Shown piece by piece: positions 22,270 through 49,042 of a stretch of DNA of 64,000 bases. A model generated the notes under the pieces. It was not told the origin of the DNA, made no database searches, and was given only the letters and a program-made list of their open reading frames with translations. A program made the position numbers and the translations under genes. This DNA comes from a virus. The stretch covers positions 62,001 to 126,000 of IMG/VR virus record IMGVR_UViG_3300027749_003047; one strand, given 5' to 3'. The stretch's first letter is position 1. Every line of letters starts with the position of its first letter.

Positions 22270-22347
22270 TGGAGCAACGGGAGGGATTTGAACCCCCGGT
22301 TTTACGGATTTGCAATCCGGTGCATTGGGCCGCTCTGCCACCGTTGC
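22270..22347 (-). tRNA. tRNA-Cys(GCA)
   Basis: Acceptor GCAACGG/CCGTTGC, encoded CCA, T-loop TTCAAAT, anticodon loop TTGCAAA giving GCA. It is the promoter-distal member of the tRNA array, separated from it by the omega-like, oxygenase-like and parvulin genes. Confidence 0.93.
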
Positions 22348-22352
22348 ACGAA

Positions 22353-22586
22353 TTAACGTACTCGTTTGAGATACTCTTTTGGATCAATCTTGCCTTGTTG
22401 GATTTCCAGTATAGCAGTTACTATTGGATAGATATGCTCATATGACTCACTGCTTCTATGCTGACGACGGATCTCTCTTGCTCGAGCTGTGGCTGCCAGA
22501 ACAAGATCATACATACCAGTCCCCATTTTGCTACAGCACAGTTCTCTGTCAATTTCTGGACCACGGCTAAGTGTTGTATTTCGCAT
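22353..22586 (-). CDS. RNA polymerase omega-subunit-like protein
   Basis: 77 residues. The middle MGTGMYDLVLAATARAREIR followed by IYPIVTAILEIQQGKI parallels bacterial RpoZ (RFDLVLVAARRARQ ... TVIALREIEEGLI), the part of omega that wraps the beta' C-terminus. Length is near the 80-90 of bacterial omega. It could replace host omega and change sigma or ppGpp response (inference). It has its own promoter at 22608-22636. The match is by eye; a structural comparison would settle it. Confidence 0.65.
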   Translation of the reverse strand: MRNTTLSRGPEIDRELCCSKMGTGMYDLVLAATARAREIRRQHRSSESYEHIYPIVTAILEIQQGKIDPKEYLKRVR

Positions 22587-22607
22587 TGATATCTCCGTTA
22601 AAACGTT

Positions 22608-22636
22608 ATTATAACATCTATTTTACTCGTAGTCAA
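22608..22636 (-). promoter_or_regulatory. Sigma-70 promoter for the omega-like gene
   Basis: Minus strand TTGACT, 17 bases, TATAAT; the -35 lies within the last codons of the upstream oxygenase-like gene. Transcription would cover the omega-like gene and tRNA-Cys. Confidence 0.75.
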
Positions 22637-23183
22637 CGTCTGCGGCTAAAATAAATCGATATTTGTCACTTTGCACAATACCTGGTCTATGCCAAATGTT
22701 GCTGGGATAGATAATCCACGAGCAGTAACTGGGTCGTACAAAAAATTTGCCAGGAGACTCTGGCCCATTGGGTGCCAGTTCGGTGCCACATGTGTCAAAA
22801 TCCTTCACATCGTCGGGGATGTGCAAGTACATGATTCCGCTTAGGCTTTTGCCCGAATGTTTGTCATGATGATGCCAATATTTGTCACGATCTTCTACTG
22901 TGCTCAAATTGGTCATAAAACTCCAAGCCATCATGTTGCTGACTCTGGCTTCGTGTCCCAAATATAAAAACACACTGGTCAAAAATGTCATACGATATTT
23001 CAACCAAACTGCCTCGGATCTGCCAAACAAATTTTCCTGTGTTTGAAACGGAGGCGAGTTTTTAAAGTAGTTGCCGCTTTCGATTATACTTTTGATAATG
23101 CCTATGGCTGTGTCGTTTTCGGTAGCTGAGATCAAACTACTGTAATCATACTTGCGGCAAAGATCGTTTGAATCTATTATCAT
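22623..23183 (-). CDS. HxD...H DSBH oxygenase-like protein
   Basis: 186 residues. WHHHDKHSGKSLSGIMYL supplies His105-x-Asp107, and NIWHRPGIVQSDKYRFIL supplies His165 and Arg176, the 2OG-Fe(II) oxygenase pattern. Phage proteins of this shape are annotated as prolyl-4-hydroxylase-like. Its start overlaps the parvulin stop by ATGA. Eighth member of this fold in the window and the only one outside the first 16 kb. Confidence 0.65.
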   Translation of the reverse strand: MIIDSNDLCRKYDYSSLISATENDTAIGIIKSIIESGNYFKNSPPFQTQENLFGRSEAVWLKYRMTFLTSVFLYLGHEARVSNMMAWSFMTNLSTVEDRDKYWHHHDKHSGKSLSGIMYLHIPDDVKDFDTCGTELAPNGPESPGKFFVRPSYCSWIIYPSNIWHRPGIVQSDKYRFILAADVDYE

Positions 23184-23440
23184 CCAGTGCGATGGATCAA
23201 GTGAAAACCAAATTGTGTTTGCACTGGCTGGCTAATAGCACCAACTGCTGTTGCCACAGTAGCATCTTCAAACGGCTTGACCATTTGACCTGGGCCGAAA
23301 TCGCCCAAGTCGCCACCACGTGCTTTACTGGGGCATGAGCTGTACTGCTGTGCAAGTGATCCAAAATTCAATGCAGTTGCTTCAGCCAAGATTGCATCAG
23401 CTTGTTCACGTGTGGCTACCAAAATATGACTTGCTTTCAT
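23180..23440 (-). CDS. Parvulin-type peptidyl-prolyl isomerase (PpiC-like)
   Basis: 86 residues, a single parvulin domain. ASHILVATREQADAILAEA, then CPSKARGGDLGDFGPGQMVKPFEDA and QTQFGFHLIHRTG are the hallmark segments, with both conserved His. No signal peptide, so it acts in the cytoplasm, like PpiC (93 residues). It speeds prolyl cis-trans isomerisation and may assist folding of virion proteins, alongside DnaK and Hsp20. It lies just downstream of tRNA-Gly, within the same transcript. Confidence 0.88.
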   Translation of the reverse strand: MKASHILVATREQADAILAEATALNFGSLAQQYSSCPSKARGGDLGDFGPGQMVKPFEDATVATAVGAISQPVQTQFGFHLIHRTG

Positions 23441-23460
23441 TTGTTTTCCTTTTTAAAAAT

Positions 23461-23534
23461 TGGAGCGGGATAAGAGAATCGAACTCTTGACCGAAGATTG
23501 GAAATCTGCTGTTTTACCATTAAACTAATCCCGC
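23461..23534 (-). tRNA. tRNA-Gly(TCC)
   Basis: Acceptor GCGGGAT with encoded CCA, T-loop TTCGATT, anticodon TCC. It resembles phage T4 tRNA-Gly. A 21-base inverted repeat begins at its 5' end. Confidence 0.92.
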
Positions 23535-23628
23535 ACTTTAATCAAACACACTTAACACTTTTTTCTAAGATGGTGTGTGGTCCTTGCAACCTAGCTTATA
23601 GCTAGGCTAAGTGTGTTTGATTAAAGTG
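23534..23628. repeat. Perfect 21-bp inverted repeat, 53-base spacer
   Basis: The arms at 23534-23554 and 23608-23628 are exact reverse complements (left arm begins cactttaatcaaacacac). The left arm touches the 5' end of tRNA-Gly, and a small CTAGC/GCTAG hairpin lies at 23591-23605 inside the loop. In RNA this would form a long stem, perhaps a tRNA-processing signal or part of a small structured RNA. Confidence 0.8.
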
Positions 23629-23924
23629 TCTAGTTACACTCTCCCGAATGCCCTAGACTAGGCTTGGTGTCCGTACCGCATGTTTCCATATAGACAGTTA
23701 GTGCTCTGCCTTTGTGATTTCTCAAGTCGCCCATATAGCGGGCCTTGCGGTAGATCCAATGCACCGTACAGTTATCGTTACTGTAATTACGCTACTTGGG
23801 TTACGGCCAGTAGTCCCGGGAAACGAATAAACATATTGTGGTGTATTGAGTATATGGGCTATGCCTATCATAGTGACTGGGATACCAAACCTGATCTTTT
23901 TACAGATTTCAATATGTTTAAACT
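23629..23924. other. Gap of about 300 bases between tRNAs, no gene recognised
   Basis: Neither strand shows a credible reading frame with a ribosome site, and no tRNA T-arm is visible. One small hairpin (ACAGT...ACTGT near 23768) is present. The stretch is probably transcribed as spacer of the tRNA array or holds an unrecognised RNA. Confidence 0.5.
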
Positions 23925-24000
23925 TGGTGCCGGTTGTCGGAATCGAACTGACCACATCCGCCTTACAAGAGCGGCGCTCTACCAAATGAGCTAAACCGGC
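23925..24000 (-). tRNA. tRNA-Thr(TGT)
   Basis: Acceptor GCCGGTT, encoded CCA, T-loop TTCGATT, anticodon loop CTTGTAA giving TGT. Confidence 0.93.
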
Positions 24001-24052
24001 AAATTTGTTACACACTACTTATCCTATTGTACACCGTGTGTAATGGTGATCT

Positions 24053-24128
24053 TGGTGGAGGATGTCGGGATCGAACCGACCACCCCCTGCTTGCAAAGCA
24101 GGTGCTCTCCCAAATGAGCTAATCCCCC
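24053..24128 (-). tRNA. tRNA-Ala(TGC)
   Basis: Acceptor GGGGGAT/ATCCTCC, encoded CCA, anticodon loop TTTGCAA giving TGC, T-loop TTCGATC. Confidence 0.94.
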
Positions 24129-24133
24129 AATCC

Positions 24134-24209
24134 TGGCTCCACAGGGTGGGCTCGAACCACCGACCAAATGATTAACAGTCATCTACTCTACCGACTGAGC
24201 TACTGCGGA
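24134..24209 (-). tRNA. tRNA-Asn(GTT)
   Basis: Acceptor TCCGCAG/CTGTGGA, encoded CCA, anticodon loop CTGTTAA giving GTT, T-loop TTCGAGC. Five bases from tRNA-Ala. Confidence 0.94.
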
Positions 24210-24218
24210 ATAATGCTT

Positions 24219-24440
24219 TTATACTGCGGTACTTGCTGTACCTGTATCGTTAGTTTGATAGTTGGCAGTACCACGCGGTGCATTCTTGTCACGCGGTGCA
24301 CTCTTGATAACAACTTCACTGCACAGTTGTGCATCGATCATCATGCGTTTGAAATGATTACGATCTTCTGCGTTCACAAACGTGGCCATAAAGCGTTTGG
24401 TTTGTTTGTTCAAATTGAACGTCTTGCCTGGTTTCATCAT
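24219..24440 (-). CDS. Small unknown protein within the tRNA array, 73 residues
   Basis: Begins MMKPGKTFNLNKQTKRFMAT; the second ATG at 24437 could also be the start. A weak AGAG precedes it. The chain is basic with a helical middle (FVNAEDRNHFKRMMIDAQLC) and a Thr/Asn-rich tail, and has the look of a real phage protein. The family is not recognised. It lies nine bases from tRNA-Asn on the same strand. Confidence 0.65.
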   Translation of the reverse strand: MMKPGKTFNLNKQTKRFMATFVNAEDRNHFKRMMIDAQLCSEVVIKSAPRDKNAPRGTANYQTNDTGTASTAV

Positions 24441-24487
24441 AGTTTTTCTCTTTTTAAAAAATGGCGGAGAGTATATCTCCTATGTAC

Positions 24488-24575
24488 TGGCGGATAGTAT
24501 AGGATTCGAACCTATGCGCCCCTTTCGGAACGACGGTTTAGCAAACCGTTGCCTTAACCACTCGGCCAACTATCC
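24488..24575 (-). tRNA. tRNA-Ser(GCT)
   Basis: Class II tRNA with a long variable arm, encoded CCA, anticodon loop TTGCTAA giving GCT, T-loop TTCGAAT. Confidence 0.93.
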
Positions 24576-24581
24576 TTTTGC

Positions 24582-24725
24582 TTATCTTGTTATCTTACGT
24601 ATTAATTTATGCCAGTAGTATCGCACACCGCGCCAAGTTGGCAGGAAATCCCATACTATGCTAAATCCAATTTCACGAGGCACGTTGCCGTATGCCTTGT
24701 TTAGAACATCTTCTCTTTTTGACAT
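24582..24725 (-). CDS. Small unknown protein, 47 residues
   Basis: ATG 24725 behind AAAGGAGATGTAGT, stop TAA at 24582. It begins MSKREDVLNKAYGNVPREIG and ends in a basic helix (WHKLIRKITR), with a short hydrophobic Trp-rich middle (FSIVWDFLPTWRGVRYYW), possibly membrane-associated. The strong ribosome site and placement between two same-strand tRNAs support it. Family unknown. Confidence 0.75.
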   Translation of the reverse strand: MSKREDVLNKAYGNVPREIGFSIVWDFLPTWRGVRYYWHKLIRKITR

Positions 24726-24744
24726 ACTACATCTCCTTTATGAA

Positions 24745-24828
24745 TGGTGCGAGAAGCGGGACTCGAACCCGCATGCCTTTCGACGAGAGATTTTAAGTCT
24801 CTTGAGTATACCATTTCTCCACTCTCGC
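24745..24828 (-). tRNA. tRNA-Leu(TAA)
   Basis: Class II, acceptor GCGAGAG/TTCTCGC, encoded CCA, anticodon loop CTTAAAA giving TAA, T-loop TTCGAGT. Confidence 0.93.
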
Positions 24829-24838
24829 AATTGACATT

Positions 24839-24912
24839 TGGCGTCCCACCAGGGACTCGAACCCCGACCAACGGTTTTGGAGACCGCTATACTGCCATTA
24901 TACTAATGAGAC
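24839..24912 (-). tRNA. tRNA-Trp(CCA)
   Basis: Acceptor GTCTCAT/GTGGGAC, encoded CCA, anticodon loop CTCCAAA giving CCA, T-loop TTCGAGT. Confidence 0.92.
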
Positions 24913-24918
24913 TCAACT

Positions 24919-25008
24919 TGGCGGAAACGGTGAGATTCGAACTCACGGAGCCTTTCGACTCGACAGTTTTCAAGACTGTTGCAATAAACCGGACTCTGCC
25001 ACATTTCC
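24919..25008 (-). tRNA. tRNA-Ser(TGA)
   Basis: Class II, acceptor GGAAATG/CGTTTCC, encoded CCA, anticodon loop CTTGAAA giving TGA, T-loop TTCGAAT. Confidence 0.93.
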
Positions 25009-25014
25009 TCTATT

Positions 25015-25088
25015 TGGTAGCGGGACCTGGAATCGAACCAAGATCTGAAGCTTATGAGACTTCTGAATTACCGTTACTCTATCCCGCG
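25015..25088 (-). tRNA. tRNA-Met(CAT), first copy
   Basis: Anticodon loop CTCATAA giving CAT, encoded CCA, T-loop TTCGATT. Aligning the D-arm places C at position 1 opposite U at 72, an unpaired 1-72 end as in bacterial initiator tRNA, though the anticodon stem lacks the three G-C pairs of an initiator. Elongator, initiator-like or Ile2 identity cannot be settled by eye. Confidence 0.85.
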
Positions 25089-25278
25089 ATATTAGGTGTA
25101 GGGCTTCCACCTACTTCCACCTCGTTTTAAAGTCTGCGTGTCCAAGACTCGATCATATAGGTGCTCTCTGTGGCGCTTGAATCCACGGTAGCCCCACTCT
25201 TCATGGCCGGTCCCGGTACATGGTCGACATTGACCGGTATTTCGGTGTTCCACTGTAGCTACTCAGAAAGCATTTATA

Positions 25279-25361
25279 TGGTGCCCCAACCGAGACTCGA
25301 ACTCGGACGCTTGCGCACTGGCTTCTAAGACCAGCGTGTCTACCAATTCCACCATCGGGGC
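25279..25361 (-). tRNA. tRNA-Leu(TAG)
   Basis: Class II, acceptor GCCCCGA, encoded CCA, anticodon loop CTTAGAA giving TAG, T-loop TTCGAGT. First tRNA after the promoter at 25415-25443. The 190 bases between it and tRNA-Met hold no recognised gene. Confidence 0.93.
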
Positions 25362-25414
25362 ATTTGCTTTTAATTTTTTAAAGAACTATTGTACCAGTTG
25401 CCTAGTATACAACT

Positions 25415-25443
25415 ATTATACAACATCTGATGCTGTGTGTCAA
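25415..25443 (-). promoter_or_regulatory. Perfect sigma-70 promoter inside the tRNA array
   Basis: Minus strand TTGACA, 17 bases, TATAAT, about 50 bases before tRNA-Leu(TAG). It divides the array into at least two transcription units. Confidence 0.88.
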
Positions 25444-25472
25444 CATCTTTGTGAAATATATTTGACTTATCG

Positions 25473-25547
25473 TGGCCGGCCATGCAGGAATCGAACCCAC
25501 ACCCTCTGTTTCGAAGACAGAGATGATATCCATTTCACCAATGGCCG
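25473..25547 (-). tRNA. tRNA-Arg(TCG)
   Basis: Acceptor CGGCCAT/ATGGCCG, encoded CCA, anticodon loop CTTCGAA giving TCG, T-loop TTCGATT. Confidence 0.92.
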
Positions 25548-25555
25548 ATATTGAT

Positions 25556-25630
25556 TGGTCCGGCTAGCAGGAATCGAACCCACATTCATGAGGTAGAAGC
25601 TCATTGTACTATCCATTGTACTATAGCCAG
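25556..25630 (-). tRNA. tRNA-Arg(TCT)
   Basis: Acceptor CTGGCTA/TAGCCGG, encoded CCA, anticodon stem ATGAG/CTCAT, loop CTTCTAC giving TCT, T-loop TTCGATT. Confidence 0.92.
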
Positions 25631-25635
25631 GTGTT

Positions 25636-25709
25636 TGGTGCTCTTAGAGGGAATCGAACCATCATTGCCTCCATACCAAGGAGGCATTCTACCATTAAAT
25701 TATAAGAGC
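25636..25709 (-). tRNA. tRNA-Thr(GGT)
   Basis: Acceptor GCTCTTA/TAAGAGC, encoded CCA, anticodon stem CCTCC/GGAGG, loop TTGGTAT giving GGT, T-loop TTCGATT. Confidence 0.88.
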
Positions 25710-25710
25710 G

Positions 25711-25802
25711 TGGTACCAGCGGAGGGAATCAAACCCTCTCAAGAACGCTAATCTGGCGCTAAAAGGTTTATAAAACCTCTCTGACTGTCAAGTCTCGCTG
25801 GC
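25711..25802 (-). tRNA. Degenerate class II tRNA-like element
   Basis: The acceptor GCCAGCG/CGCTGGT and an encoded CCA are intact and it has a long variable arm, but the T-loop reads TTTGATT (C56 changed to U) and the D-loop lacks the GG pair. The best anticodon loop is TTTATAA, giving TAT, an Ile anticodon that would be odd with a class II variable arm. Either a decaying tRNA or a tRNA mimic. Confidence 0.55.
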
Positions 25803-25804
25803 AT

Positions 25805-25894
25805 TGGTGCCCGGGATGAGATTCGAACTCACAACTAGGTGTTTTTCCTTCTTCCTTTTGAGAGAAGTGCGTCTACCAATTTCGCCACCCGGGC
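25805..25894 (-). tRNA. tRNA-Leu(CAA)
   Basis: Class II, acceptor GCCCGGG, encoded CCA, anticodon loop CTCAAAA giving CAA, T-loop TTCGAAT. Confidence 0.92.
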
Positions 25895-25948
25895 ATAAAA
25901 GAAAAACTCCCAGGGGACACTATGTGAACAAGTCTAGGAGCCATAATT

Positions 25949-26024
25949 TGGAGCGGGCGAAGAGGTTCGAACTCTCGACATTTACCTTGGCAAGGTAATG
26001 CTCTACCAACTGAGCTACGCCCGC
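25949..26024 (-). tRNA. tRNA-Gly(GCC)
   Basis: Acceptor GCGGGCG/CGCCCGC with encoded CCA, anticodon loop TTGCCAA giving GCC, T-loop TTCGAAC. Confidence 0.94.
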
Positions 26025-26441
26025 ATAAAGATATTAGTAAAAGATTCACAGAGTTTTGGTTTTGCGTTAGCAGTGGCGACCCAGACTTTTCAGATCTGCT
26101 CTTTTGGTCTCGCCTAACATGGAATGCGTGATCGACTGTTGGGTCAATGCTGAAAACAATACCCAACTCTATCTGCCAATCAGTGTTATAGTCTATAACT
26201 ATCCTCTTTGAACGCTTCCGGCATCCTCAAAGTTCTTGCGAAACACTATCACACCTTAAATCTTTTACTAATACAATTACTTAGTAAGTGTCAGATTGTT
26301 TACCGCACAACCTGACAAAGCGGGGGTCTGTTGAATTTGTAAGTTGTTGCGTCCCTCTCATCGCAACCATTTTCCCTTGTAATTGAGCCGGCAGGGTCAG
26401 GATAAGTTACTTGGAATACTTGTCCAGTTTAGTCGCCTCAA
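26025..26441. other. Gap of about 420 bases in the tRNA array, no gene recognised
   Basis: No convincing reading frame or tRNA lies here; an apparent 97-codon minus-strand frame runs straight through tRNA-Gly and is a shadow. The stretch holds a 15-bp inverted repeat (listed separately). It may encode an unrecognised structured RNA. Confidence 0.5.
26032..26273. repeat. Perfect 15-bp inverted repeat, 212-base spacer
   Basis: Arms at 26032-26046 (tattagtaaaagatt) and 26259-26273 are exact reverse complements. The left arm lies eight bases from the 5' end of tRNA-Gly(GCC), the same position as the repeat beside tRNA-Gly(TCC). Confidence 0.7.
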
Positions 26442-26520
26442 TGGACCTAGTGGGTGTCGAACCCATCACCTTCTACTGTTTCGGTCCTTCGAAGAAACCT
26501 AGACAGCGTGACTTTCTCTT
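26442..26520 (-). pseudogene. tRNA-like remnant: T-arm and acceptor end
   Basis: On the minus strand a clear T-arm (TGGG TTCGACA CCCA) is followed by CTAGGTCCA. No normal D-arm or matching seven-base 5' acceptor strand is found within 80 bases; GGACC at 26487 pairs with the 3' GGTCC, giving only a minihelix. An alternative 5-bp stem with loop CTTCGAA is also present. Best read as a broken tRNA. Confidence 0.4.
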
Positions 26521-26538
26521 GCTAACACTTACAAAACT

Positions 26539-26614
26539 TGGTGCTACCTCCAGGAATCGAACCTGGTTCAACGGTTCTTCAGACCGCCGCTATGACCACA
26601 TCAGCTAAAGTAGC
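26539..26614 (-). tRNA. tRNA-Phe(GAA)
   Basis: Acceptor GCTACTT/AGGTAGC, encoded CCA, anticodon loop CTGAAGA giving GAA, T-loop TTCGATT. Confidence 0.93.
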
Positions 26615-26619
26615 ATGTT

Positions 26620-26695
26620 TGGGGTGCCTTACCGGTATCGATCCGGTACTACCGCTTTCACAGAGCAGGGTGCAGGCCACTACACTAAAGACACC
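26620..26695 (-). tRNA. tRNA-His(GTG)
   Basis: Anticodon loop CTGTGAA giving GTG. An extra 5' G(-1) opposite C73 is encoded, the identity feature of tRNA-His. The T-loop is ATCGATA, slightly unusual at the first position. CCA encoded. Confidence 0.9.
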
Positions 26696-26701
26696 ATTGA
26701 T

Positions 26702-26775
26702 TGGCAGAGGGTAAAGGAATCGAACCTTTAATAGCGGAATCAAAATCCGCGGTTATACCATTTAACTAACCCCCA
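26702..26775 (-). tRNA. tRNA-Gln(TTG)
   Basis: Anticodon stem GCGGA/TCCGC, loop TTTTGAT giving TTG, T-loop TTCGATT, encoded CCA. Position 1 is U, opposite U72, a weak end as in other Gln tRNAs. Confidence 0.9.
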
Positions 26776-26781
26776 ACAGTT

Positions 26782-26857
26782 TGGTGGAAGTTGACGGGAT
26801 CGAACCGCCGACATTCTGCGTGTAAGGCAGACGCTCTACCAGCTGAGCTAAACTTCC
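26782..26857 (-). tRNA. tRNA-Val(TAC)
   Basis: Acceptor GGAAGTT/AACTTCC, encoded CCA, anticodon loop CTTACAC giving TAC, T-loop TTCGATC. Confidence 0.94.
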
Positions 26858-26861
26858 AATT

Positions 26862-26937
26862 TGGTAGTAGAGGTGGGACTCGAACCCACGATAAACACCG
26901 TATGAAGGTGGTGCATTAGCCGCTATGCTACTCTACT
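26862..26937 (-). tRNA. tRNA-Met or tRNA-Ile2(CAT), second copy
   Basis: Acceptor AGTAGAG/CTCTACT, encoded CCA, anticodon loop TTCATAC giving CAT, T-loop TTCGAGT. Phages often carry a CAT tRNA that lysidine converts to read AUA as Ile; identity cannot be decided by eye. Confidence 0.87.
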
Positions 26938-26949
26938 GTAAAAAATTAT

Positions 26950-26957
26950 AATAAATA
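26950..26957 (+). promoter_or_regulatory. T4-late-like promoter motif AATAAATA
   Basis: Plus strand, seven bases before the ATG at 26965, in the divergent gap after the CAT tRNA. Any transcript from it would have a very short leader. Confidence 0.4.
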
Positions 26958-26964
26958 TTTTACT

Positions 26965-27768
26965 ATGATTAAAAAAATCGTTTTCGCAGGATGCAGTATT
27001 ACCGCTGGTACAGAGCTATGGGAAGAAAAATTCGTCCCCCAATACACCGCTATGAATGTGTTTCAAGCTGGTAAAGCTACTAGGTCTGCATCCGATGAAC
27101 AAATAAACGAATATAATAAACAATATTGTTACCCATCATTGGTAGGCAATCTACTCAATGCAGAGATTGAAAATATTGCCCTACGAGGTATTTCCAATAA
27201 AGAAATAGCTATGCGAGCTATTTTAAAATTTCCTGAAAACCACTACGATGATACTGTAGCAGTGATTCAAATGACTACTCATAATCGACTACTAGTGAAT
27301 TATTCAAATAACCTAGTAAACAGTGCAGTTCTACAACCAAACTGGCCGACTCATTTTTTAAATAGTAGACAAAACAATATCATGCAAGAATTCTTTCTTG
27401 AATTTTTTAACGAATCGCTTACGATGGTTGAAGACTATGTGTCTGTGCTATATGCTGTAAGACTACTTCGTTCTAAAAATATACCCTGTTATCTGTTACG
27501 TATCTCGCCTACTAAGTTAAATCAACCTTTGGAAGAACCGCACCTAAAAGGGCAAGAGGTCGATCTAATAGTGAATGAAAAAGATCCAATCTTGTTAAAT
27601 GATATCCAACAGCAGTTGTTAAAAGAGTTTTATGACTTTAAACTAACTGCTAAATCTTTGGAAGAAATAACAAATGCTGACTACTTGCCCCAATGGCATT
27701 TTACGCAATCCGGACACGATCTAATAGCCAAAGATCTAGCTGAGAAGATTAAATGTTTGCATTTTTAA
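26965..27768 (+). CDS. SGNH-hydrolase-like protein on the opposite strand of the tRNA array
   Basis: 267 residues. N-terminal KKIVFAGCSITAGTELWEEK has Ser in a GCS block and the C-terminal QWHFTQSGHDLIAKDLAEKI contributes the catalytic His, as in SGNH hydrolases. It lies in the tRNA array but on the other strand, with its own late-like motif, so it is an insertion relative to the array's transcription. Related to 160-924 and 7553-8362. Confidence 0.65.
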   Translation: MIKKIVFAGCSITAGTELWEEKFVPQYTAMNVFQAGKATRSASDEQINEYNKQYCYPSLVGNLLNAEIENIALRGISNKEIAMRAILKFPENHYDDTVAVIQMTTHNRLLVNYSNNLVNSAVLQPNWPTHFLNSRQNNIMQEFFLEFFNESLTMVEDYVSVLYAVRLLRSKNIPCYLLRISPTKLNQPLEEPHLKGQEVDLIVNEKDPILLNDIQQQLLKEFYDFKLTAKSLEEITNADYLPQWHFTQSGHDLIAKDLAEKIKCLHF

Positions 27769-27845
27769 AATCTTTATACATCCGTTTCAAGTATAGGAAA
27801 AAGATTAAAGAGATTAAAAAACAATCTCGATTTATCTACAAGTAA
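27753..27845 (+). CDS. Small basic protein, 30 residues
   Basis: ATG 27753 overlaps the end of the SGNH gene; stop TAA at 27843-27845. It begins MFAFLKSLYIRFKYRKKIKE and ends RFIYK, very like small proteins of T4-like phages that end in DPFIY. No ribosome site is evident, so translation would be coupled to the upstream gene. Function unknown. Confidence 0.5.
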   Translation: MFAFLKSLYIRFKYRKKIKEIKKQSRFIYK

Positions 27846-27861
27846 TACCATATAGAAACAC

Positions 27862-27932
27862 ACTAGAGTGGGATTTGAACACCACGTTCACCGACCTATT
27901 TGCCAGCGTCTTAGTCCACTAGAAGATCCAGT
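27862..27932 (-). pseudogene. Degenerate tRNA-like sequence
   Basis: Acceptor strands ACTGGAT and CTCTAGT mostly pair and a T-arm (GTGG...TTCAAAT...CCAC) is visible but has extra bases; the anticodon arm around CTGGCAAAT does not form a proper five-pair stem, and CCA is not encoded, unlike all neighbours. Probably a decayed tRNA. Confidence 0.45.
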
Positions 27933-27943
27933 ATGTTTTTATA

Positions 27944-28018
27944 TGGTAGGGGCACAGAGAATCGAACTCTGATTTACGGGTTAAAAGCCCGCTACTTTAG
28001 CCGTTAAGTTATACCCCC
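27944..28018 (-). tRNA. tRNA-Lys(TTT)
   Basis: Acceptor GGGGGTA/TGCCCCT, encoded CCA, anticodon loop CTTTTAA giving TTT, T-loop TTCGATT. Confidence 0.93.
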
Positions 28019-28068
28019 ATCATCTTATCACTCTTGTCACTGGTCATGACAGATCTCCTTTTATAAAA

Positions 28069-28446
28069 TTAAACTGTTTCGTATCCTAGGTTTACGCTTT
28101 CGCTGTAGTACCCGTTGCTTTCTCCTAGCCATCTCACGTCCACATAGCCCTTGCGAGTAGCGAACTTGTAAAATGTCCAAGTGTAACTTTCGTATGCTTC
28201 AAAGTCAGCTGGGCTTTCACCTTCAACTTCGTCTGCTATTACTAAAGGTTCACCTTCTAGGTCGCTCAAGTCGCCCGCGATGTCTTCAATGCGCACATGT
28301 TCGCAACAATCTTGTGCATGAAAGAACACATAACGATCCACGCTGTTTTCAAACACCAACTCGTTGCCATCTGCTTTTACACTTGTAAAAGTTTTACCTA
28401 CCATGTCTGCTATTTTAGCAGAGTTATTCCAGTCACTATATGACAT
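28069..28446 (-). CDS. DUF7448-like conserved phage protein
   Basis: 125 residues. The run DRYVFFHAQDCCEHVRIEDI followed by AGDLSDLEGEPLVIADE and SYTWTFYKFATRKGYVDVRW, SNGYYSESV matches a small, widely distributed phage and bacterial family that I recall as DUF7448. Its function is unknown; the His/Asp/Cys-rich middle could bind a metal. It is on the same strand as and between tRNA genes. Confidence 0.7.
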   Translation of the reverse strand: MSYSDWNNSAKIADMVGKTFTSVKADGNELVFENSVDRYVFFHAQDCCEHVRIEDIAGDLSDLEGEPLVIADEVEGESPADFEAYESYTWTFYKFATRKGYVDVRWLGESNGYYSESVNLGYETV

Positions 28447-28474
28447 AACATTTCCTTTGTTCTTTGTTAAAAAT

Positions 28475-28548
28475 TGGTCCTCTCGACAAGAATCGAACTT
28501 GTAATGGCCGGTTATCAGCCGACTGTTATACCATTTAACTACAAGAGG
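28475..28548 (-). tRNA. tRNA-Ile(GAT)
   Basis: Acceptor CCTCTTG/CGAGAGG, encoded CCA, anticodon stem GTCGG/CCGGC, loop CTGATAA giving GAT, T-loop TTCGATT. The 195 bases upstream, to tRNA-Glu, show only small hairpins and a TATAAT at 28575-28580 without a good -35. Confidence 0.92.
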
Positions 28549-28743
28549 AAAAGCTCTGACATCCCTCGGCGGTAATTATAGCACATCAGGACTAGGTCCA
28601 TCACGCATGCCCTCCACCCGCTTCCCGACAGGGACCGCTATCGTGTTGCTAACGCTAGTTCGGTAAGACTAGAACCACCCTTGAGAGTCACCTCACTTCC
28701 CATCCTGCGGGTCACAGTATCCGCTAACAAAGCGGAACGTTCT

Positions 28744-28818
28744 TGGTACACGGTACGGGAATCGAACCCGTCTTACTGACGTGAAAGGCCAGTGTCCTAA
28801 CCGATAGACGAACCGTGC
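28744..28818 (-). tRNA. tRNA-Glu(TTC)
   Basis: Acceptor GCACGGT/ACCGTGT, encoded CCA, anticodon loop CTTTCAC giving TTC, T-loop TTCGATT. Confidence 0.93.
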
Positions 28819-28825
28819 ATAAAAT

Positions 28826-28902
28826 TGGTCGGAGTACAAGGATTCGAACCTTGGACCCCCTGGTCCCAAACCAGGTGCGCTACCAGACTGCGCTACACTC
28901 CG
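28826..28902 (-). tRNA. tRNA-Pro(TGG)
   Basis: Acceptor CGGAGTG/TACTCCG, encoded CCA, anticodon stem CCTGG/CCAGG, loop TTTGGGA giving TGG, T-loop TTCGAAT. Confidence 0.94.
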
Positions 28903-28910
28903 AATATACT

Positions 28911-28985
28911 TGGCGATCCTGCGGGGAATCGAACCCCGATATCCGACTAGACAGGCCGGTATAATAACCACTATATGACAGGACC
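28911..28985 (-). tRNA. tRNA-Asp(GTC)
   Basis: Acceptor GGTCCTG/CAGGATC, encoded CCA, anticodon loop CTGTCTA giving GTC, T-loop TTCGATT. Confidence 0.94.
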
Positions 28986-28990
28986 AAATT

Positions 28991-29079
28991 TGGTGGAAGT
29001 GGTTGGATTCGAACCAACAATGTTTCTTATGTGGCGGATTTACAGTCCGTTGCCTTCAACCAATTCAGCGCACACTTCC
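28991..29079 (-). tRNA. tRNA-Tyr(GTA)
   Basis: Class II with long variable arm, acceptor GGAAGTG/CACTTCC, encoded CCA, anticodon loop CTGTAAA giving GTA. First tRNA after the promoter at 29088-29116. Confidence 0.94.
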
Positions 29080-30501: not shown

Positions 30502-30530
30502 ATTATATATGCAAATTGTTTACTGGTCAA
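30502..30530 (-). promoter_or_regulatory. Sigma-70 promoter for the outer-membrane protein gene
   Basis: Minus strand TTGACC, 17 bases, TATAAT, 47 bases before the ATG, immediately after the tmRNA terminator. AAGGAAG precedes the ATG. Confidence 0.82.
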
Positions 30531-30556
30531 TAAAAAAGGCACTCGAAAGTGCCTTT
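30531..30556 (-). terminator. Rho-independent terminator after the tmRNA
   Basis: A hairpin AAAGGCACT-CGAA-AGTGCCTTT (palindromic on both strands) followed on the minus strand by a T run. It ends the coding piece of the permuted tmRNA. Confidence 0.85.
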
Positions 30557-30559
30557 TTG

Positions 30560-30767
30560 GTTGTTTTGATGACAAGGTAAGTCCTACCTCGCGAGTGCAG
30601 TTTCTTAGGCTGCGATTGCAAATTCTGCATCATTAGCAGTAGCTAATGTTACAGGAACTTGGAAATACTCGAATGTATTTGCTTTTGCATTTACTTTATT
30701 TGTATTTTACGTGACCCCACGTGTTGACCTTTATCCTATCTCACCCTGTCGAAACCATGGCAGGCCC
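30560..30767 (-). ncRNA. ssrA: Permuted tmRNA, coding (5') piece with tag reading frame
   Basis: On the minus strand this piece starts GGGCCTGCCATGGTTTCGAC AGGGTGAG, the typical tmRNA 5' end; GGGCCTG (30767-30761) pairs with CAGGTCC of the acceptor piece (30842-30848). An open frame from GCA at 30682 to TAA at 30605 encodes a 25-residue tag ending ANDAEFAIAA, the usual small-hydrophobic proteolysis end (-AA). A GCA two codons earlier could also be the resume codon. The exact 3' end, before the terminator, is approximate. Confidence 0.85.
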
Positions 30768-30837
30768 ATCAAAAGCATACTATTTTAGTCTGAGCGCATC
30801 ACATGCGACTTTTTAACTCAACGACCTAATATGCTTA

Positions 30838-30905
30838 TGGTGGACCTGGCGGGAGTCGAACCCGCGTCCAGAATGCCTTACTTTAAGGCTTGTACAACAA
30901 TTCTT
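30838..30905 (-). ncRNA. ssrA: Permuted tmRNA, acceptor (3') piece
   Basis: Minus strand: GGACGCGGGTTCGACTCCCG CCAGGTCC then ACCA, the canonical tmRNA T-arm and acceptor with encoded CCA. It lies upstream of the coding piece in transcription order, with a 70-base intervening segment (30768-30837) that would be removed, so the molecule is a two-piece, circularly permuted tmRNA. The 5' boundary near 30905 is a guess. It is charged with Ala if, as usual, the acceptor G-U pair is read: G3-U70 is present here. Confidence 0.85.
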
Positions 30906-30911
30906 TTGCTA

Positions 30912-30983
30912 TTACTTGTTACGTGCTTTACGAGTTGCACGTTTGGCTCTAGCTTTGACTGATTTTACGCGACCTTGTGTCAT
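30912..30983 (-). CDS. Very basic 23-residue protein upstream of the tmRNA
   Basis: ATG 30983 overlaps the TGA of the preceding 35-codon gene (ATGA); AGGAG lies eight to twelve bases upstream. It begins MTQGRVKSVKARAKRATRKA and ends RNK. The stop is six bases before the tmRNA acceptor piece region. Such a charge suggests RNA or DNA binding, perhaps to the ribosome, but this is a guess from composition. Confidence 0.65.
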   Translation of the reverse strand: MTQGRVKSVKARAKRATRKARNK

Positions 30984-31087
30984 TTTGATTTTCTCCTGAC
31001 TACCCGTTTAGCCATAGCTTTTACAGTCTTTGGCCTAGGTGGTTTTTTACCTTTTAAAATTTGCGAAACTCTACGAGGACTCGGCAT
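30980..31087 (-). CDS. Very basic 35-residue protein
   Basis: ATG 31087 behind AAAGGAGAGCACT, stop TGA 30980 overlapping the next start. It begins MPSPRRVSQILKGKKPPRPK, then TVKAMAKRVVRRKSK. Together with the following gene it forms a two-gene unit in front of the tmRNA under the promoter at 31112-31140. Function unknown; nucleic-acid binding is likely from composition. Confidence 0.7.
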   Translation of the reverse strand: MPSPRRVSQILKGKKPPRPKTVKAMAKRVVRRKSK

Positions 31088-31111: not shown

Positions 31112-31140
31112 ATTATATATCCTTTCTAGCAAGATAGCAA
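31112..31140 (-). promoter_or_regulatory. Sigma-70 promoter for the basic peptides and permuted tmRNA
   Basis: Minus strand TTGCTA, 17 bases, TATAAT, 25 bases before ATG 31087. No terminator lies between it and the tmRNA, so one transcript probably carries both small genes and the tmRNA. Confidence 0.75.
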
Positions 31141-33048: not shown

Positions 33049-33762
33049 ATGAACATAATTATATACACACTTGTAGTCACACACATCACTATCGTTTCCG
33101 TTACTTTGTTTTTACACAGAGGCCAAGCGCACAAGGGAATCGCATTCAACCCGATACTAAGCCATTTCATGCGAGCATGGCTATGGCTTACAACTGGTAT
33201 GGTAACCAAACAATGGGTGGCTATACATCGTAAGCATCATGCATTTAGTGATAATGCGGGTGATCCGCATAGCCCGCACGTATACGGCATCGCTCGTGTA
33301 TTTTTCAAAGGTGCAGGCCTTTATCATCTAGCAAGTAAAGACACAGACATGGTCAACAAGTTTGGAGTAGGTACTCCTGACGATTGGATTGAGCGTAACA
33401 TTTATACACCCCATAGCCGCCTCGGTATTCTTCTAATGCTGATCATAGATCTATTGTTCTTTGGACCGTGGGGATTTGTAGTGTGGGGTGTGCAAATGAT
33501 ATGGATTCCATTTTGGGCCGCTGGAGTTATCAACGGTATAGGACATTGGTATGGTTACAAGAACGGAACTACTCGTGATAGTAGTCGCAACATTGTTCCT
33601 TGGGGCATTGTGGTGGGCGGTGAAGAACTTCATAATAACCATCATCTTAATCCAGCAAGCGTTAAACTGAGTCGCCGCTGGTTTGAATTTGATATTGGTT
33701 ATATGTGGCTGAGACTTTTTAGTTTATTAGGACTTGCAAAACTTATTTCTCGTGAGCAATAA
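33049..33762 (+). CDS. Fatty-acid desaturase, second copy
   Basis: 237 residues, membrane protein. Histidine boxes HRGQAH (about 24-29), HRKHH (about 61-65) and HNNHH near 197 coordinate the di-iron site. The spacing resembles delta-9 acyl-CoA desaturases. It is clearly diverged from the copy at 16657-17424, so it may act on another position or acyl carrier. Its 3' end overlaps the convergent cyclase gene by 20 bases. Confidence 0.87.
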   Translation: MNIIIYTLVVTHITIVSVTLFLHRGQAHKGIAFNPILSHFMRAWLWLTTGMVTKQWVAIHRKHHAFSDNAGDPHSPHVYGIARVFFKGAGLYHLASKDTDMVNKFGVGTPDDWIERNIYTPHSRLGILLMLIIDLLFFGPWGFVVWGVQMIWIPFWAAGVINGIGHWYGYKNGTTRDSSRNIVPWGIVVGGEELHNNHHLNPASVKLSRRWFEFDIGYMWLRLFSLLGLAKLISREQ

Positions 33763-35797: not shown

Positions 35798-36794
35798 TGG
35801 ATTTTTCCACTAGGTTGTCACGGAATATTTGCCAAGCCTTTTCCCAAGTCCAACGTTGACTACCCATTTCAACATAACCTCTGTTTAATTGTAAACAACC
35901 TGTAACAGCATCCTCTAGACTTTCATTCATAAATCCAGTTACGCCTTGATCAATAACATCTTCCGGACCTTGACATGGAAACGCGGCTACGGGAGTTCCG
36001 CAGGCCATTGCTTCTATCATTACAATACCAAATGTTTCCCATTGACTAGGAAATACAAACACTTCAGCGTTGGCATAGTATCGAGCTAAATCTACACCTG
36101 TTTTAAATCCTGTAAAATGTACATCGGGATATTTTTTCTTGTAAGTTTCTAGCATAGGTCCATCGCCTACCATTATTTTTAAATAGCCAGGATAGTCTAG
36201 CTCAAAAAACTTTTCTAAATTCTTTTCCTTACTCACACGGCTAACACACAGCAAATATTTTGCTAGAACTTCTTCTCTAAGTGCTGGAGTAAAGATTGTA
36301 CGATCAACCCCACGAGTCCATGGAATAACTTCGCCATCAAATCCATGTGCCTTTAATTCCTTAACCATTGAGTCTGTAGTTGTTAAAACTTTGCCACTAT
36401 GCTTATGAAACCAGCGTACAAATCTCCAGGTAAGTGACTCAGGTACGCCAAATAGCTTTCGGAGCCCTTCAGGAAACTTAGTGTGATAAGCGGTATTGTG
36501 GCGAATATTACCCAATGAAAGATATGCTCGAGCCCACAAACCCAAAGGACCCTCTGTGGCGATATGGATATAATCCGGAGATATCTCCTCAATCTTCTTG
36601 CCGAGGTTCCGGGGATAGGCAATCTTGACTTCGTTGTAGCCAGGACAATCAATGTAGCGGAACCACCCGGGATCCAACACCACAACGTTATAACCGTCAC
36701 GAACAGCACACGTCTCAATATTTTTGTAAGTCGTAACAACACCATTGATCTGGTCCTTTAGATTATCTGTGATAATTAAAATAGTTTTTGTCAT
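35793..36794 (-). CDS. Glycosyltransferase, GT4 family
   Basis: 333 residues. Two Rossmann-like halves: N-terminal acceptor part with GVVTTYKNIE and YHTKFPEG, C-terminal donor part with VFPSQWETFGIVMIEAMACG, then TPVAAFPCQGPEDVI, the E-x7-E retaining motif of GT4. It is similar in layout to diacylglycerol or phosphatidyl-inositol mannosyl- and glucosyltransferases. Overlaps the ATP-grasp gene by ATGA. Probably glycosylates a lipid or surface sugar, as part of the envelope module 35793-38417. Confidence 0.85.
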   Translation of the reverse strand: MTKTILIITDNLKDQINGVVTTYKNIETCAVRDGYNVVVLDPGWFRYIDCPGYNEVKIAYPRNLGKKIEEISPDYIHIATEGPLGLWARAYLSLGNIRHNTAYHTKFPEGLRKLFGVPESLTWRFVRWFHKHSGKVLTTTDSMVKELKAHGFDGEVIPWTRGVDRTIFTPALREEVLAKYLLCVSRVSKEKNLEKFFELDYPGYLKIMVGDGPMLETYKKKYPDVHFTGFKTGVDLARYYANAEVFVFPSQWETFGIVMIEAMACGTPVAAFPCQGPEDVIDQGVTGFMNESLEDAVTGCLQLNRGYVEMGSQRWTWEKAWQIFRDNLVEKSR

Positions 36795-45055: not shown

Positions 45056-45063
45056 TATTTATA
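45056..45063 (-). promoter_or_regulatory. Exact T4-late consensus TATAAATA
   Basis: Minus strand, seven bases before the ATG at 45048 and overlapping the last codons of the bilin reductase gene. Full match to the T4 late consensus; the transcript would have a leader of only a few bases. Confidence 0.5.
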
Positions 45064-46588: not shown

Positions 46589-46608
46589 TCTAGCTCTTTC
46601 TATTAAGA

Positions 46609-46626
46609 GGGGGAGTTTCCTCCCCC
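46609..46626 (-). terminator. Hairpin between hsp20 and clpS, weak terminator
   Basis: GGGGGAG/CTCCCCC stem with four-base loop just after the Hsp20 stop. The minus-strand tail is TCTTAATAG, not a T run, so it may attenuate or stabilise rather than stop transcription. Confidence 0.45.
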
Positions 46627-46631
46627 GTTGA

Positions 46632-47063
46632 TTATTTAATTACAATTTGTCGAGGCTTCAGTGCTTCTGGCATGATGCGGTCAATTTGAATGACCAACAT
46701 ACCGTCTTTGACTTCGGCATCTTTAACTTCCATGTATTCAGCCAGTGTCCATGTCTGTTCGAAGTTTCGGCTAGCTAGTCCGCGATGTAAGTATTCCTTA
46801 CCTTCGGTTACTACTTCACCCTGAACACCACGAACAATCAATTGATCCTGGTCAACTTCTACTGTGATTTCTTCTTTGCTGAAACCTGCCACTGCTACTT
46901 CAATAGCATATTCACTGTCACTATACTTCACAATGTTGTGTGGAGGATAGTTACTGTTTGCTTGTTGCAATCTTTGGTTAAAGATTTGATCAAAGCCAAT
47001 TAAGGCTCTACTTAGATTGGCGAAGTCTGCTGGACTCACCGCTTTTAATTGCATTGTTGCCAT
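46632..47063 (-). CDS. Small heat-shock protein, Hsp20/IbpA type
   Basis: 143 residues from ATG 47063 behind AAGGAG. An alpha-crystallin domain spans about 40-125 (YPPHNIVKYSDSEYAIEVAV, AGFSKEEITVEVDQDQLIVR, YLHRGLASRNFEQTWTL, AEVKDGMLVIQI) as in IbpA/IbpB. It holds unfolding proteins for DnaK, which is encoded just upstream. Hsp20 genes are frequent in T4-like cyanophages. C-terminal PRQIVIK fits the IxI-type tail. Confidence 0.92.
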   Translation of the reverse strand: MATMQLKAVSPADFANLSRALIGFDQIFNQRLQQANSNYPPHNIVKYSDSEYAIEVAVAGFSKEEITVEVDQDQLIVRGVQGEVVTEGKEYLHRGLASRNFEQTWTLAEYMEVKDAEVKDGMLVIQIDRIMPEALKPRQIVIK

Positions 47064-47091
47064 TTTTAATCTCCTTATATTAAGCAAGAAT

Positions 47092-47117
47092 GTGTAGGAC
47101 CCCGAAGGCGTCCTACA
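47092..47117 (-). other. UUCG-loop hairpin between dnaK and hsp20
   Basis: GTAGGACGCC-TTCG-GGGTCCTAC on the minus strand, between the dnaK stop and the hsp20 ribosome site. No T run follows, so it is probably an mRNA stability or processing element rather than a terminator. Confidence 0.5.
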
Positions 47118-47128
47118 ATTACATTATA

Positions 47129-49042
47129 TTACTTCTTTTCTTCTTTGTCAACTTCTGTGAAGCTAGCATCAACCGTTTGCTCTTGAGCTGATTGGCTTTG
47201 AGCTGGGGTTTCGTCTGTCGTTGATTCAGCGGCTTGTTTTTTAGTCATAACCGGACCAGCGGCTTCAAAGAAAGTCTGTACTGATTTGTCAATCGCCTCT
47301 TTGTCTTCACCAGCACAAGCAGTTTCCACTGCTTTTACTGCTTCGTCAAATTTGGTTCTTTCTTCCTCAGTCAATTGATCTTTATACGTTTCATAGTCTT
47401 TCTTGATACTGTGTGTAGTACCTTCAGCTTGATTACGTGCTCCGATCAATTCTGCTGCCTTCTTGTCTGATTCGGCATTTTCTTCAGCTTCACGAACCAT
47501 ACGTTGGATTTCAGCTTCAGTTAGTCCGGAATCAGACTTGATAGTTATCTTGTTTTCTTTGCCAGTGGTTTTATTTTTGGCACTTACATTCAAGATACCG
47601 TTTGCATCTAAATCTAGTGTGACTTCAATCTGTGGCATACCGCGTGGTGCAGGGTCAATACCCTCTAGATTGAACTCACCTAGCATCTTATTATACTTAA
47701 ACAACTCACGCTCGCCCTGTGCAACTTTGATTGTCACAGCTGGTTGATTGTCTTCTGCTGTTGAGAATGTTTGTGAGTGTTTGGTTGGTATAGTTGTATT
47801 TTTGCTGATCAGCTTGGTAAACACTCCGCCCATTGTTTCAATACCCAATGTCAATGGAGTCACGTCCAACAACAGCACGTCTGTCTTGTCGCCTGCTAGA
47901 ACAGCGCCTTGTACTGCGGCACCTGCGGCCACTGCTTCGTCTGGGTTGACATCTTTGCGTGGTGCCTTGCCAAACAGTTTCTCAACTGCTTCTTGCACTT
48001 TGGGCATACGTGTTTGGCCGCCAACTAGGATAACTTCGTCGATATCTACGGCTGTAACTTTGGCATCATTCATAGCAATCTTACATGGCTCAATTGAACG
48101 CTCGATCAGTTTCTCAACCATTTGCTCAAACTTGGCACGGCTGATAGTCACATTCATGTGCTTTGGACCACTGGCATCTGCTGTGATGTATGGCAAGTTA
48201 ACAGTTGTACTTGCGGCACTAGACAATTCAATCTTGGCCTTTTCAGCAGACTCTTTCAAACGCTGTAAAGCCAGCACGTCTTGCTTTAGGTCAATACCAT
48301 TGTCTTTCTTAAACTCTGCTACCAAATGATCCATAAGAACTTGGTCAAAGTCTTCACCACCTAGGAATGTGTCACCGTTTGTACTCAACACTTCAATTTG
48401 CTTGTCGCCGTCAATGTTGGCAATTTCAATAATGGAGATGTCAAATGTACCACCACCCAAGTCATACACAGCGATCTTACGATCTTTCTTGTCTTGCTTG
48501 TCTACACCATATGCCAATGCGGCCGCTGTTGGCTCATTGATGATACGTAGAACTTCTAGTCCAGCGATACGTCCTGCGTCTTTGGTTGCTTGACGTTGGC
48601 TGTCGTTGAAGTAAGCAGGCACAGTGATAACTGCCTGTGTAACTTCTTTACCCAGATAGTCTTCTGCTGTCTTTTTCATTTTACGTAGCACTTCAGCTGA
48701 CACCTGCTGTGGAGCAAGTTTCTCGCCGTTGGCTTCAATCCAAGCGTCACCGTTGTCAGCTTTGATAATTGAATAAGGCATCAAGTCGATGTCTTTTTGT
48801 ACTTCTTTCTCGTCAAACTTGCGACCAATAAGGCGCTTGCTGGCGTAGATTGTATTCTTTGGGTTTGTGACTGCTTGTCGTTTTGCTGTTGCACCTACTA
48901 GGATCTCGTCCTTGGTATATGCAATGATTGATGGTGTTGTTCTCGCACCTTCGCTGTTTTCAATTACTTTGGCAACTCCGTTTTCCAGGATTGCCACACA
49001 GCTATTTGTTGTACCTAAATCGATACCGATGATTTTGCTCAT
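47129..49042 (-). CDS. dnaK: DnaK (Hsp70 chaperone), full length
   Basis: 637 residues, against 638 in E. coli. All ATPase motifs ([63 protein letters not shown]) and the substrate-binding domain ([20 protein letters not shown]) are intact, ending in an acidic tail EVDKEEKK. No DnaJ or GrpE gene is in the window, so host partners are needed. Complete phage DnaK genes are rare. AAAGGAG precedes the ATG; a GATAAATA motif lies at 49123-49130. Confidence 0.96.

What the first reader, a model, noticed from the sequence alone, without database searches (positions are those of the whole stretch)
30560..30910. Phage-encoded circularly permuted (two-piece) tmRNA
On the minus strand a tmRNA 3' end (T-arm, acceptor, encoded CCA at 30838) comes before a tmRNA 5' end (GGGCCTG at 30767). 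The two acceptor strands pair over seven bases including G3-U70, 70 bases apart in permuted order. The coding piece holds a tag frame ending ANDAEFAIAA-stop, followed by a terminator. Permuted tmRNAs are known from alphaproteobacteria, a betaproteobacterial lineage and some cyanobacteria; a phage copy is rare. The tag frame is long (25 or 27 codons).
Basis: partly seen in the sequence, partly recalled or inferred. Interest (0 to 1): 0.9.

Follow-up and report, generated by a model that had tools for sequence, protein, structure and literature searches.

The report
Phage split tmRNA with extended tag
A large bacterial virus carries its own two-piece ribosome-rescue RNA, and this copy belongs to a group, seen so far only in viruses, whose protein-destruction tag is more than twice the usual length because a conserved extra stretch precedes the normal ending.

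Summary
ARAGORN and two Rfam models (tmRNA_permuted 118.9 bits, beta_tmRNA 118.5 bits) call a circularly permuted tmRNA on the minus strand at about 30950-30514. In 72 distinct copies of its tag group the two gene pieces covary as pairing partners, so the gene is selected as a two-piece tmRNA. That a phage carries one is not new: Buchholz 2022 counted 53 two-piece among 133 unique phage tmRNAs; a tag-blind pattern finds 103 stretches in IMG/VR. (1) The 27-codon tag is no one-off: 25 of those 103 stretches, and at least 119 by a tag pattern, open A-[NKT]-A-[NDS]-T-F-[EDK]-[YF] and end in a usual degron; the pattern hit 0 of 84,980 prokaryote genomes, and the 2 hits of a looser one are not tmRNAs. 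(2) The PK1 site is a plain hairpin here, in 14 of 72 copies; five other tags occur with and without it. The record also encodes ClpP, ClpS, Hsp20 and DnaK; some relatives add ClpA-like proteins. That the extension redirects tagged proteins is inference. New variant of a known kind.

The parts
30838..30899 (-). acceptor (tRNA-like 3') piece: inter-piece helix strands, hairpin, T-arm, acceptor 3' strand, encoded CCA
30768..30837 (-). 70-nt intervening sequence, removed in maturation (inferred); its ends (AAGCATA / TATGCTT) pair and extend the acceptor stem in the precursor fold
   Evidence: minimum-energy fold
30761..30767 (-). mature 5' end (inferred) and acceptor 5' strand GGGCCTG with G3-U70
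30742..30748 (-). coding-piece strand CAGGGTG of the second inter-piece helix; pairs with CATTCTG at 30875-30869
   Evidence: covariation
30709..30722 (-). hairpin ACGTG-GGGT-CACGT at the PK1 site
30638..30688 (-). first 17 codons of the tag: resume codon GCA and the extension, AKANTFEYFQVPVTLAT
30605..30637 (-). canonical 10-codon tag ending ANDAEFAIAA and stop TAA
30573..30591 (-). hairpin CGAGGTA-GGACT-TACCTTG downstream of the tag
30533..30558 (-). terminator-like stem-loop (listed by the scan for the + strand only)
31112..31140 (-). promoter-like site TTGCTA-17-TATAAT upstream of two tiny ORFs and the tmRNA; the scan found 3 sites in the region, 1.7 expected, so it is not evidence alone
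22270..29079 (-). 28 tRNA genes covering all 20 amino acids
46286..46588 (-). ClpS, adaptor of ClpA
46632..47087 (-). Hsp20 family small heat-shock protein
47129..49042 (-). DnaK (Hsp70)

Best explanation
The gene is a working, phage-encoded, two-piece tmRNA. One precursor is made and cut so that the acceptor piece and the coding piece stay joined by base pairs. Host alanyl-tRNA synthetase charges it (G3-U70) and host SmpB brings it to stalled ribosomes. The ribosome resumes at GCA 30688 and adds a 27-residue tag in two parts: a conserved viral extension and a canonical degron ending AIAA, which feeds the tagged protein to Clp protease, of the host or of the phage, since this phage encodes ClpP and ClpS. 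Shown by sequence: gene form, inter-piece pairing under selection, the shared frame and motif of the extension, the conserved endings, phage ClpP, ClpS and DnaK genes, no SmpB match in the record. Inferred: expression, processing, charging, tagging, and any effect of the extension on which unfoldase or adaptor handles tagged proteins.
For: Rfam and ARAGORN. Covariation between the pieces in 72 extended-group and 66 other distinct permuted tmRNAs of viral records. The extension follows a resume context of the ordinary kind: GTAAA[TA] in 99 of 102 extended-group copies and GTAAA[TCA] in 39 of 80 others, with 70 nt from TCGA as the commonest distance in both (60 of 102, 28 of 80); the hairpin-module copies, this one too, have 64-65. 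The tag pattern imposed GTAAA[AT] on part of the 102. 50 distinct extended tags (51 as called) of 22-31 codons all end LAA, IAA, MAA, VAA, LVA, MVA or IVA; in the set found without regard to the tag, 24 of 24 called extended tags have the full opening motif. pN/pS in the middle of the extension is 0.29, 0.44, 0.55 and 0.55 in four length classes; a fifth has no change there. ClpP in the own record, 254 bits; ClpS in the window; ClpA-like ATPases in 7 of 17 virus records.
Against: No expression data. No SmpB in the own record or in 10 large relatives, so it must borrow the host's. The PK1-site pseudoknot is missing in this copy. No Clp ATPase (AAA_2) match in the own record or in G008, which carries the same tag. 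pN/pS values are uncorrected pairwise averages on non-independent sequences; six classes with fewer than 4 sequences were not tested; in the first 8 codons, partly fixed by the search pattern, one class gives 1.06. Codon 5 (ACA) never varies and codon 4 always ends in T in the five classes printed, which could mean an RNA-level constraint.
Confidence: 0.85

Rival explanations
1. The extension is not translated, or not selected as peptide: it is an RNA spacer or hairpin within the coding piece, and the true resume codon is the GCT of ANDAEFAIAA.
For: The extension of this copy can form two hairpins (fold); codons 4 and 5 hardly vary at third positions.
Against: The ordinary resume context precedes the extension, not the inner degron, and the bases before the inner degron are unlike it in the six copies printed. 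The hairpin AAATAC/GTATTT of this copy is broken in L008 and L026 (read by eye). Synonymous change exceeds amino-acid change in the four classes that vary.
Confidence: 0.08
2. A captured or decaying host gene without function, kept by chance.
For: Hairpin in place of PK1 and no SmpB; ssrA fragments in prophages are known (passage in PMC9004378).
Against: Compensatory changes between the pieces, intact degron, many viral copies.
Confidence: 0.04
3. An ordinary tmRNA whose job is only ribosome rescue for heavy phage translation; the extension has no effect on the fate of the tagged protein.
For: 28 tRNAs for all 20 amino acids fit a translation-support package; the middle of the extension differs between classes; 10-codon tags serve other phages that also have ClpP and ClpA-like genes (G007, G010).
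Against: The opening motif is shared by 50 distinct tags with different middles and was not found in prokaryote genomes by the two patterns tried.
Confidence: 0.4

Closest known systems
Betaproteobacterial permuted (two-piece) tmRNA, Rfam RF01850 / RF04321
   Same: piece order, acceptor and inter-piece helices, tag frame and degron
   Different: 27-codon tag with a viral extension; hairpin at the PK1 site
Two-piece tmRNA of Methylophilales phage Melnitz and other aquatic phages (PMC9004378; abstract and passages seen)
   Same: phage-borne permuted tmRNA; a cyclase-like protein of the window (33743-35785) is 45% identical to Melnitz's
   Different: Melnitz's is alphaproteobacterial in type per the paper, with a 14-codon tag ANDNYVPVDYALAA
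Xanthomonas jumbo phage XacN1 tmRNA (not annotated in the record)
   Same: tag opens ANANTFDY
   Different: tag is only 12 codons, ANANTFDYALAA: the motif without the insert
Long Lon-directed tag of Mesoplasma florum (passages of PMC9382460)
   Same: longer tag; precedent for a tag read by another protease
   Different: ends NYAFA per that review and is bacterial; this one keeps a Clp-type ending
ClpP, ClpA, ClpX or ClpS genes of jumbo phages (passages of PMC7824862)
   Same: same protease parts on large phages
   Different: the word tmRNA has 0 occurrences in that paper's main text; here tmRNA and Clp genes sit in one record

Membership tests
permuted tmRNA (RF04321) | score above the curated cut-off, acceptor piece before coding piece | tested here: met
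   118.9 bits, cut-off 47
permuted tmRNA (RF04321) | acceptor stem and inter-piece helix pairs, with compensatory change | tested here: met
permuted tmRNA (RF04321) | G3-U70 alanine identity pair | tested here: met
   window sequence; G-U in 181 of 182 parsed copies
beta_tmRNA (RF01850) | score above cut-off 84 over the whole model | tested here: met
   118.5 bits, positions 1-331
beta_tmRNA (RF01850) | PK1 pseudoknot upstream of the tag (feature recalled; not encoded in the model) | tested here: not met
   Hairpin only in this copy. Of 72 distinct copies 14 carry this hairpin, 5 a longer form, and 53 fall in a pseudoknot-type class by elimination, 44 of which have a paired 4-bp first stem. 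So I file the gene under the general permuted family RF04321, not as a typical beta member
tmRNA | tag frame from a resume codon to a stop with hydrophobic-Ala-Ala type ending | tested here: met
tmRNA | works with SmpB, is charged with alanine, tags proteins | not testable with these tools
   SmpB not found in the record; host unknown
extended-tag group (defined here) | opening motif, 22-31 codons, degron ending | tested here: met

The most novel reading that the evidence does not exclude
Some large T4-like phages have evolved their own protein-disposal route: a viral two-piece tmRNA writes a virus-specific two-part tag whose front half is read by viral Clp parts (ClpA-like, ClpP, ClpS), so that proteins from stalled ribosomes in the infected cell are handled by the phage rather than by the host's ClpXP and SspB. 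Phage ClpS, which in E. coli turns ClpA away from ordinary ssrA tags (passage of PMC9382460), would make an altered tag useful.
Probability: 0.25. Interest if true: 0.85.

Novelty: new variant of a known kind. Interest (0 to 1): 0.6.

Why it matters
The most frequent tmRNA tag length is 10 residues (PMC11915505, passage). A tag family seen so far only in viruses, with a conserved front half, would be a natural experiment in what tags can do besides ClpXP delivery, and it makes a phage-run route of ribosome rescue and proteolysis directly testable. The exchange of PK1-site modules around identical tags also shows which tmRNA parts are interchangeable in nature, in line with laboratory hairpin replacements of PK1.

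Tried and rejected
(a) Close relatives among isolated phages: blastn of the tmRNA against 50,697 phage records (E up to 10) gave 507 records, none covering 80%; the rows listed (20 of 507) cover at most 20%, mostly the T-arm to 5'-end stretch, and three Vibrio phages match the 3' end. 4.9 kb around it gave 8 records with tRNA or T-arm pieces. L032's tmRNA gave 14 records, none covering 80%. (b) A hairpin inside the tag as the reason for its conservation: broken in relatives. (c) A downstream pseudoknot in this copy: the GTTAT/ATAGC and ACTAT/ATAGT modules of relatives suggest one, the GGACT loop of this copy does not. (d) SspB as partner: 0 of 17 virus records. (e) A link of extended tags with Clp genes. 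Counting G000 with G008 and G002 with G009 once each (same tags): full-strength ClpP in 4 of 6 extended-tag lineages against 2 of 9 others, ClpA-like 4 of 6 against 2 of 9, ClpS 6 of 6 against 2 of 9. But six of the nine ordinary-tag records are under 180 kb, so genome size explains it as well. (f) Bacterial tags. In 369 genomes of one class 4 passed the RF04321 cut-off; of their four loci one (L247) is permuted, tag ANDDNFEVALAA, three are standard. In the 30 loci read ARAGORN also gave two second, permuted calls with 18-19-codon tags (L261, L265) beside a standard tmRNA; I take them as spurious, untested. In the order of L247's genome 5 of 85 passed and ARAGORN gave tags for 2 of those 5. 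This control is small and the Burkholderiales were not sampled on purpose. (g) The two loose-pattern hits in genomes (L209, L210) are not tmRNAs. Both patterns demand GTAAA before the tag, so XacN1-like contexts would be missed.

Rows dropped: 8 of 190 permuted calls (two at locus edges, the duplicate L001, five without a parsable 5' end). each used 72 distinct extended-group copies after their own filters. One search left out tags lacking the two leading residues, tags over 33 codons and copies with N. In the set 17 of 99 new loci had no ARAGORN call; their printed contexts show the same coding piece, some cut by the contig end. ARAGORN called L104 with a 9-codon tag; I read its frame from the upstream resume codon.

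Full report
What is there. The window is bases 62001-126000 of a 133,387-base IMG/VR virus record. On its minus strand ARAGORN finds 28 tRNAs for all 20 amino acids and one permuted tmRNA at 30514-30930. Rfam agrees with two models well over their cut-offs. The layout is: acceptor piece (to CCA 30838), 70-nt intervening sequence, coding piece from GGGCCTG 30767, resume codon 30688, stop 30605, terminator-like stem 30558-30533.

Is it a functional two-piece tmRNA? The best sequence test is whether the two pieces, separate molecules after processing, change together. I parsed permuted tmRNAs of viral contigs and phage records and asked whether each acceptor piece pairs better with its own coding piece than with those of other loci. 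For the helix next to the T-arm, 71 of 72 distinct extended-group copies form all 7 pairs, against a mean of 25.8 (most 36) in 1000 shuffles; there are 17 different versions of the helix. For the acceptor stem it is 72 of 72 against 33.7 (most 44), with the 5' strand picked by best match. In 66 ordinary-tag copies the figures are 61 against 24.1 and 65 against 25.6. The sequences are related, so this is not a probability, but versions such as CAGGGTG/CATTCTG, CAGCGTG/CATGTTG and CGTGGCG/CGTTGCG are compensatory.

How common is it? A pattern for T-arm, CCA, 41-71 nt and the 5' end, blind to the tag, finds 103 stretches in IMG/VR. ARAGORN of 103 as permuted. 25 of 103 have the extended tag (24 as called, plus L104 by its upstream frame), 75 another tag, 58 of these of 10 codons. 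Buchholz et al. 2022 (PMC9004378, abstract and passages) had already reported 53 two-piece among 133 unique tmRNA structures in 402 of 18,146 phage genomes. So a phage copy is neither rare nor new.

The extended tag. This copy's tag is AKANTFEYFQVPVTLAT followed by ANDAEFAIAA. Of the 99 newly fetched viral loci 82 have an ARAGORN permuted call, and the other 17 show the same coding piece as far as the contig reaches. The two scans give 51 distinct extended tags as called, 50 after three early starts are trimmed, of 22-31 codons; all 50 have the full opening and end LAA (39), IAA (4), MAA (2), VAA (2), LVA, MVA or IVA (1 each). In the tag-blind set the opening was not imposed, and 24 of 24 called tags have it. 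The resume context is of the ordinary kind: GTAAA[TA] in 99 of 102 extended-group copies, GTAAA[TCA] in 39 of 80 others. Synonymous change exceeds amino-acid change in the middle of the tag: pN/pS 0.29 (20 sequences), 0.44 (20), 0.55 (6), 0.55 (4); a fifth class of 4 sequences has no change there, and six classes with fewer than 4 were not tested. The opening 8 codons were partly fixed by the pattern, so I draw no rate from them. XacN1 has the opening joined directly to ALAA (12 codons), which suggests that the motif is older than the insert; this is inference.

Structure modules. Of 72 distinct copies, 53 fall by elimination in a class with a pseudoknot-type stretch before the tag; 44 of these have a paired 4-bp first stem in four versions (CGGT/ACCG 26, CAGT/ACTG 14, GGGT/ACCC 3, GAGT/ACTC 1), the other 9 differ there. 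The second stem (for example TGA/TCA, TGGA/TCCA) I read by eye only. This copy and 13 others have the hairpin ACGTG-GGGT-CACGT, and 5 a longer form. The window's own tag was seen only with the hairpin, but five other tags occur, letter for letter, with both modules, so parts of these genes have been exchanged between phages. In E. coli a hairpin can stand in for PK1 (passages of PMC3968760 and PMC3989591).

Company. The record encodes a ClpP outside the window (PF00574 254 bits; it passes NCBIfam subfamily NF001368, 294 against 249, but not the equivalog TIGR00493, 277 against 309). In the window ClpS 46286-46588, Hsp20 46632-47087 and DnaK 47129-49042 stand side by side. Among 17 virus records a ClpP of E 1e-61 or better is in 8, weaker ClpP-like matches alone in 4 more, a ClpA-like ATPase (AAA_2 match in a frame of about 750 residues) in 7, a ClpX-like frame in 2, ClpS in 9, SspB in 0. 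NCBIfam was run on two ClpA-like proteins (best family ClpA, 878 and 885 bits, below its cut-off 993) and on one ClpX-like (507, above 359). All six ClpA-like sequences printed carry IGF, the tripeptide I recall from ClpP-binding loops; three are shown in context. SmpB was not found in 11 virus records. T4-type major capsid (Gp23) is found in 8 of 11 records and Terminase_6C in 9 of 11, neither in this 133-kb record; its phage nature rests on IMG/VR's class, on phage-type ribonucleotide reductase, endolysin and fibre-like genes, and on near relatives. The host is unknown; the tmRNA type hints at a betaproteobacterium, but phage and host types can differ, as for Melnitz.

How it works, most likely: as tmRNA does elsewhere, with host synthetase and SmpB, during infection. 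The extension is translated and kept. What it is for is open: handling by phage or host Clp parts, or nothing (see rivals).

Novelty in print. In the held PMC library I searched: permuted tmRNA with phage (2 papers), tmRNA with phage-encoded or tag peptide (198 papers, 30 listed), the tag openings (2 unrelated papers), two-piece tmRNA with phage, tmRNA with ClpP, phage and jumbo, trans-translation with phage-encoded, tmRNA and ClpXP, tmRNA with phage genomes, tag peptide and metagenom-. None of the listings or of the passages I opened (PMC9004378, PMC11915505, PMC4131195, PMC7162821, PMC11242549, PMC7824862, PMC5852040, PMC9382460, PMC3989591, PMC3968760, PMC5587285) reports this tag group. 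Most listed papers were not opened; subscription papers, the tmRNA database itself and supplements were not searched.

Noticed in passing
window 45059-46289: Heme oxygenase next to a ferredoxin-dependent bilin reductase: a phycobilin-making pair on a phage record whose tmRNA is not of cyanobacterial type.
   Followed up: no
window 46286-49042: ClpS, Hsp20 and DnaK in a row; DnaK passes two NCBIfam equivalog cut-offs. In locus L117 ClpS, DnaK and the tmRNA lie within 13.5 kb.
   Followed up: partly
window 30912-31087: Two tiny, very basic ORFs (35 and 23 residues; 30980-31087 and 30912-30983) between a promoter-like site and the tmRNA; the parts compared (28 and 23 residues) are identical in L049.
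   Followed up: no
window 4087-10536: Four radical SAM genes in a cluster.
   Followed up: no
window 36791-37690 and 33049-33762: RimK-like ATP-grasp protein and a fatty-acid desaturase.
   Followed up: no
window 18020-20092 and 60705-62714: Large proteins with an Mtd N-terminal (tropism determinant) domain, perhaps tail fibres; the second match is below Pfam's cut-off.
   Followed up: no
L002, L003, L004, L005: Permuted tmRNAs called by ARAGORN but not annotated in the public records of phages X1, vB_Af_QDWS595, BUCT628 and XacN1.
   Followed up: partly
L015, L044, L076, L082: A second type of long viral tag, ATASTGEVTV... or AKASTGEVTV... ending FAV, 29-31 codons.
   Followed up: no
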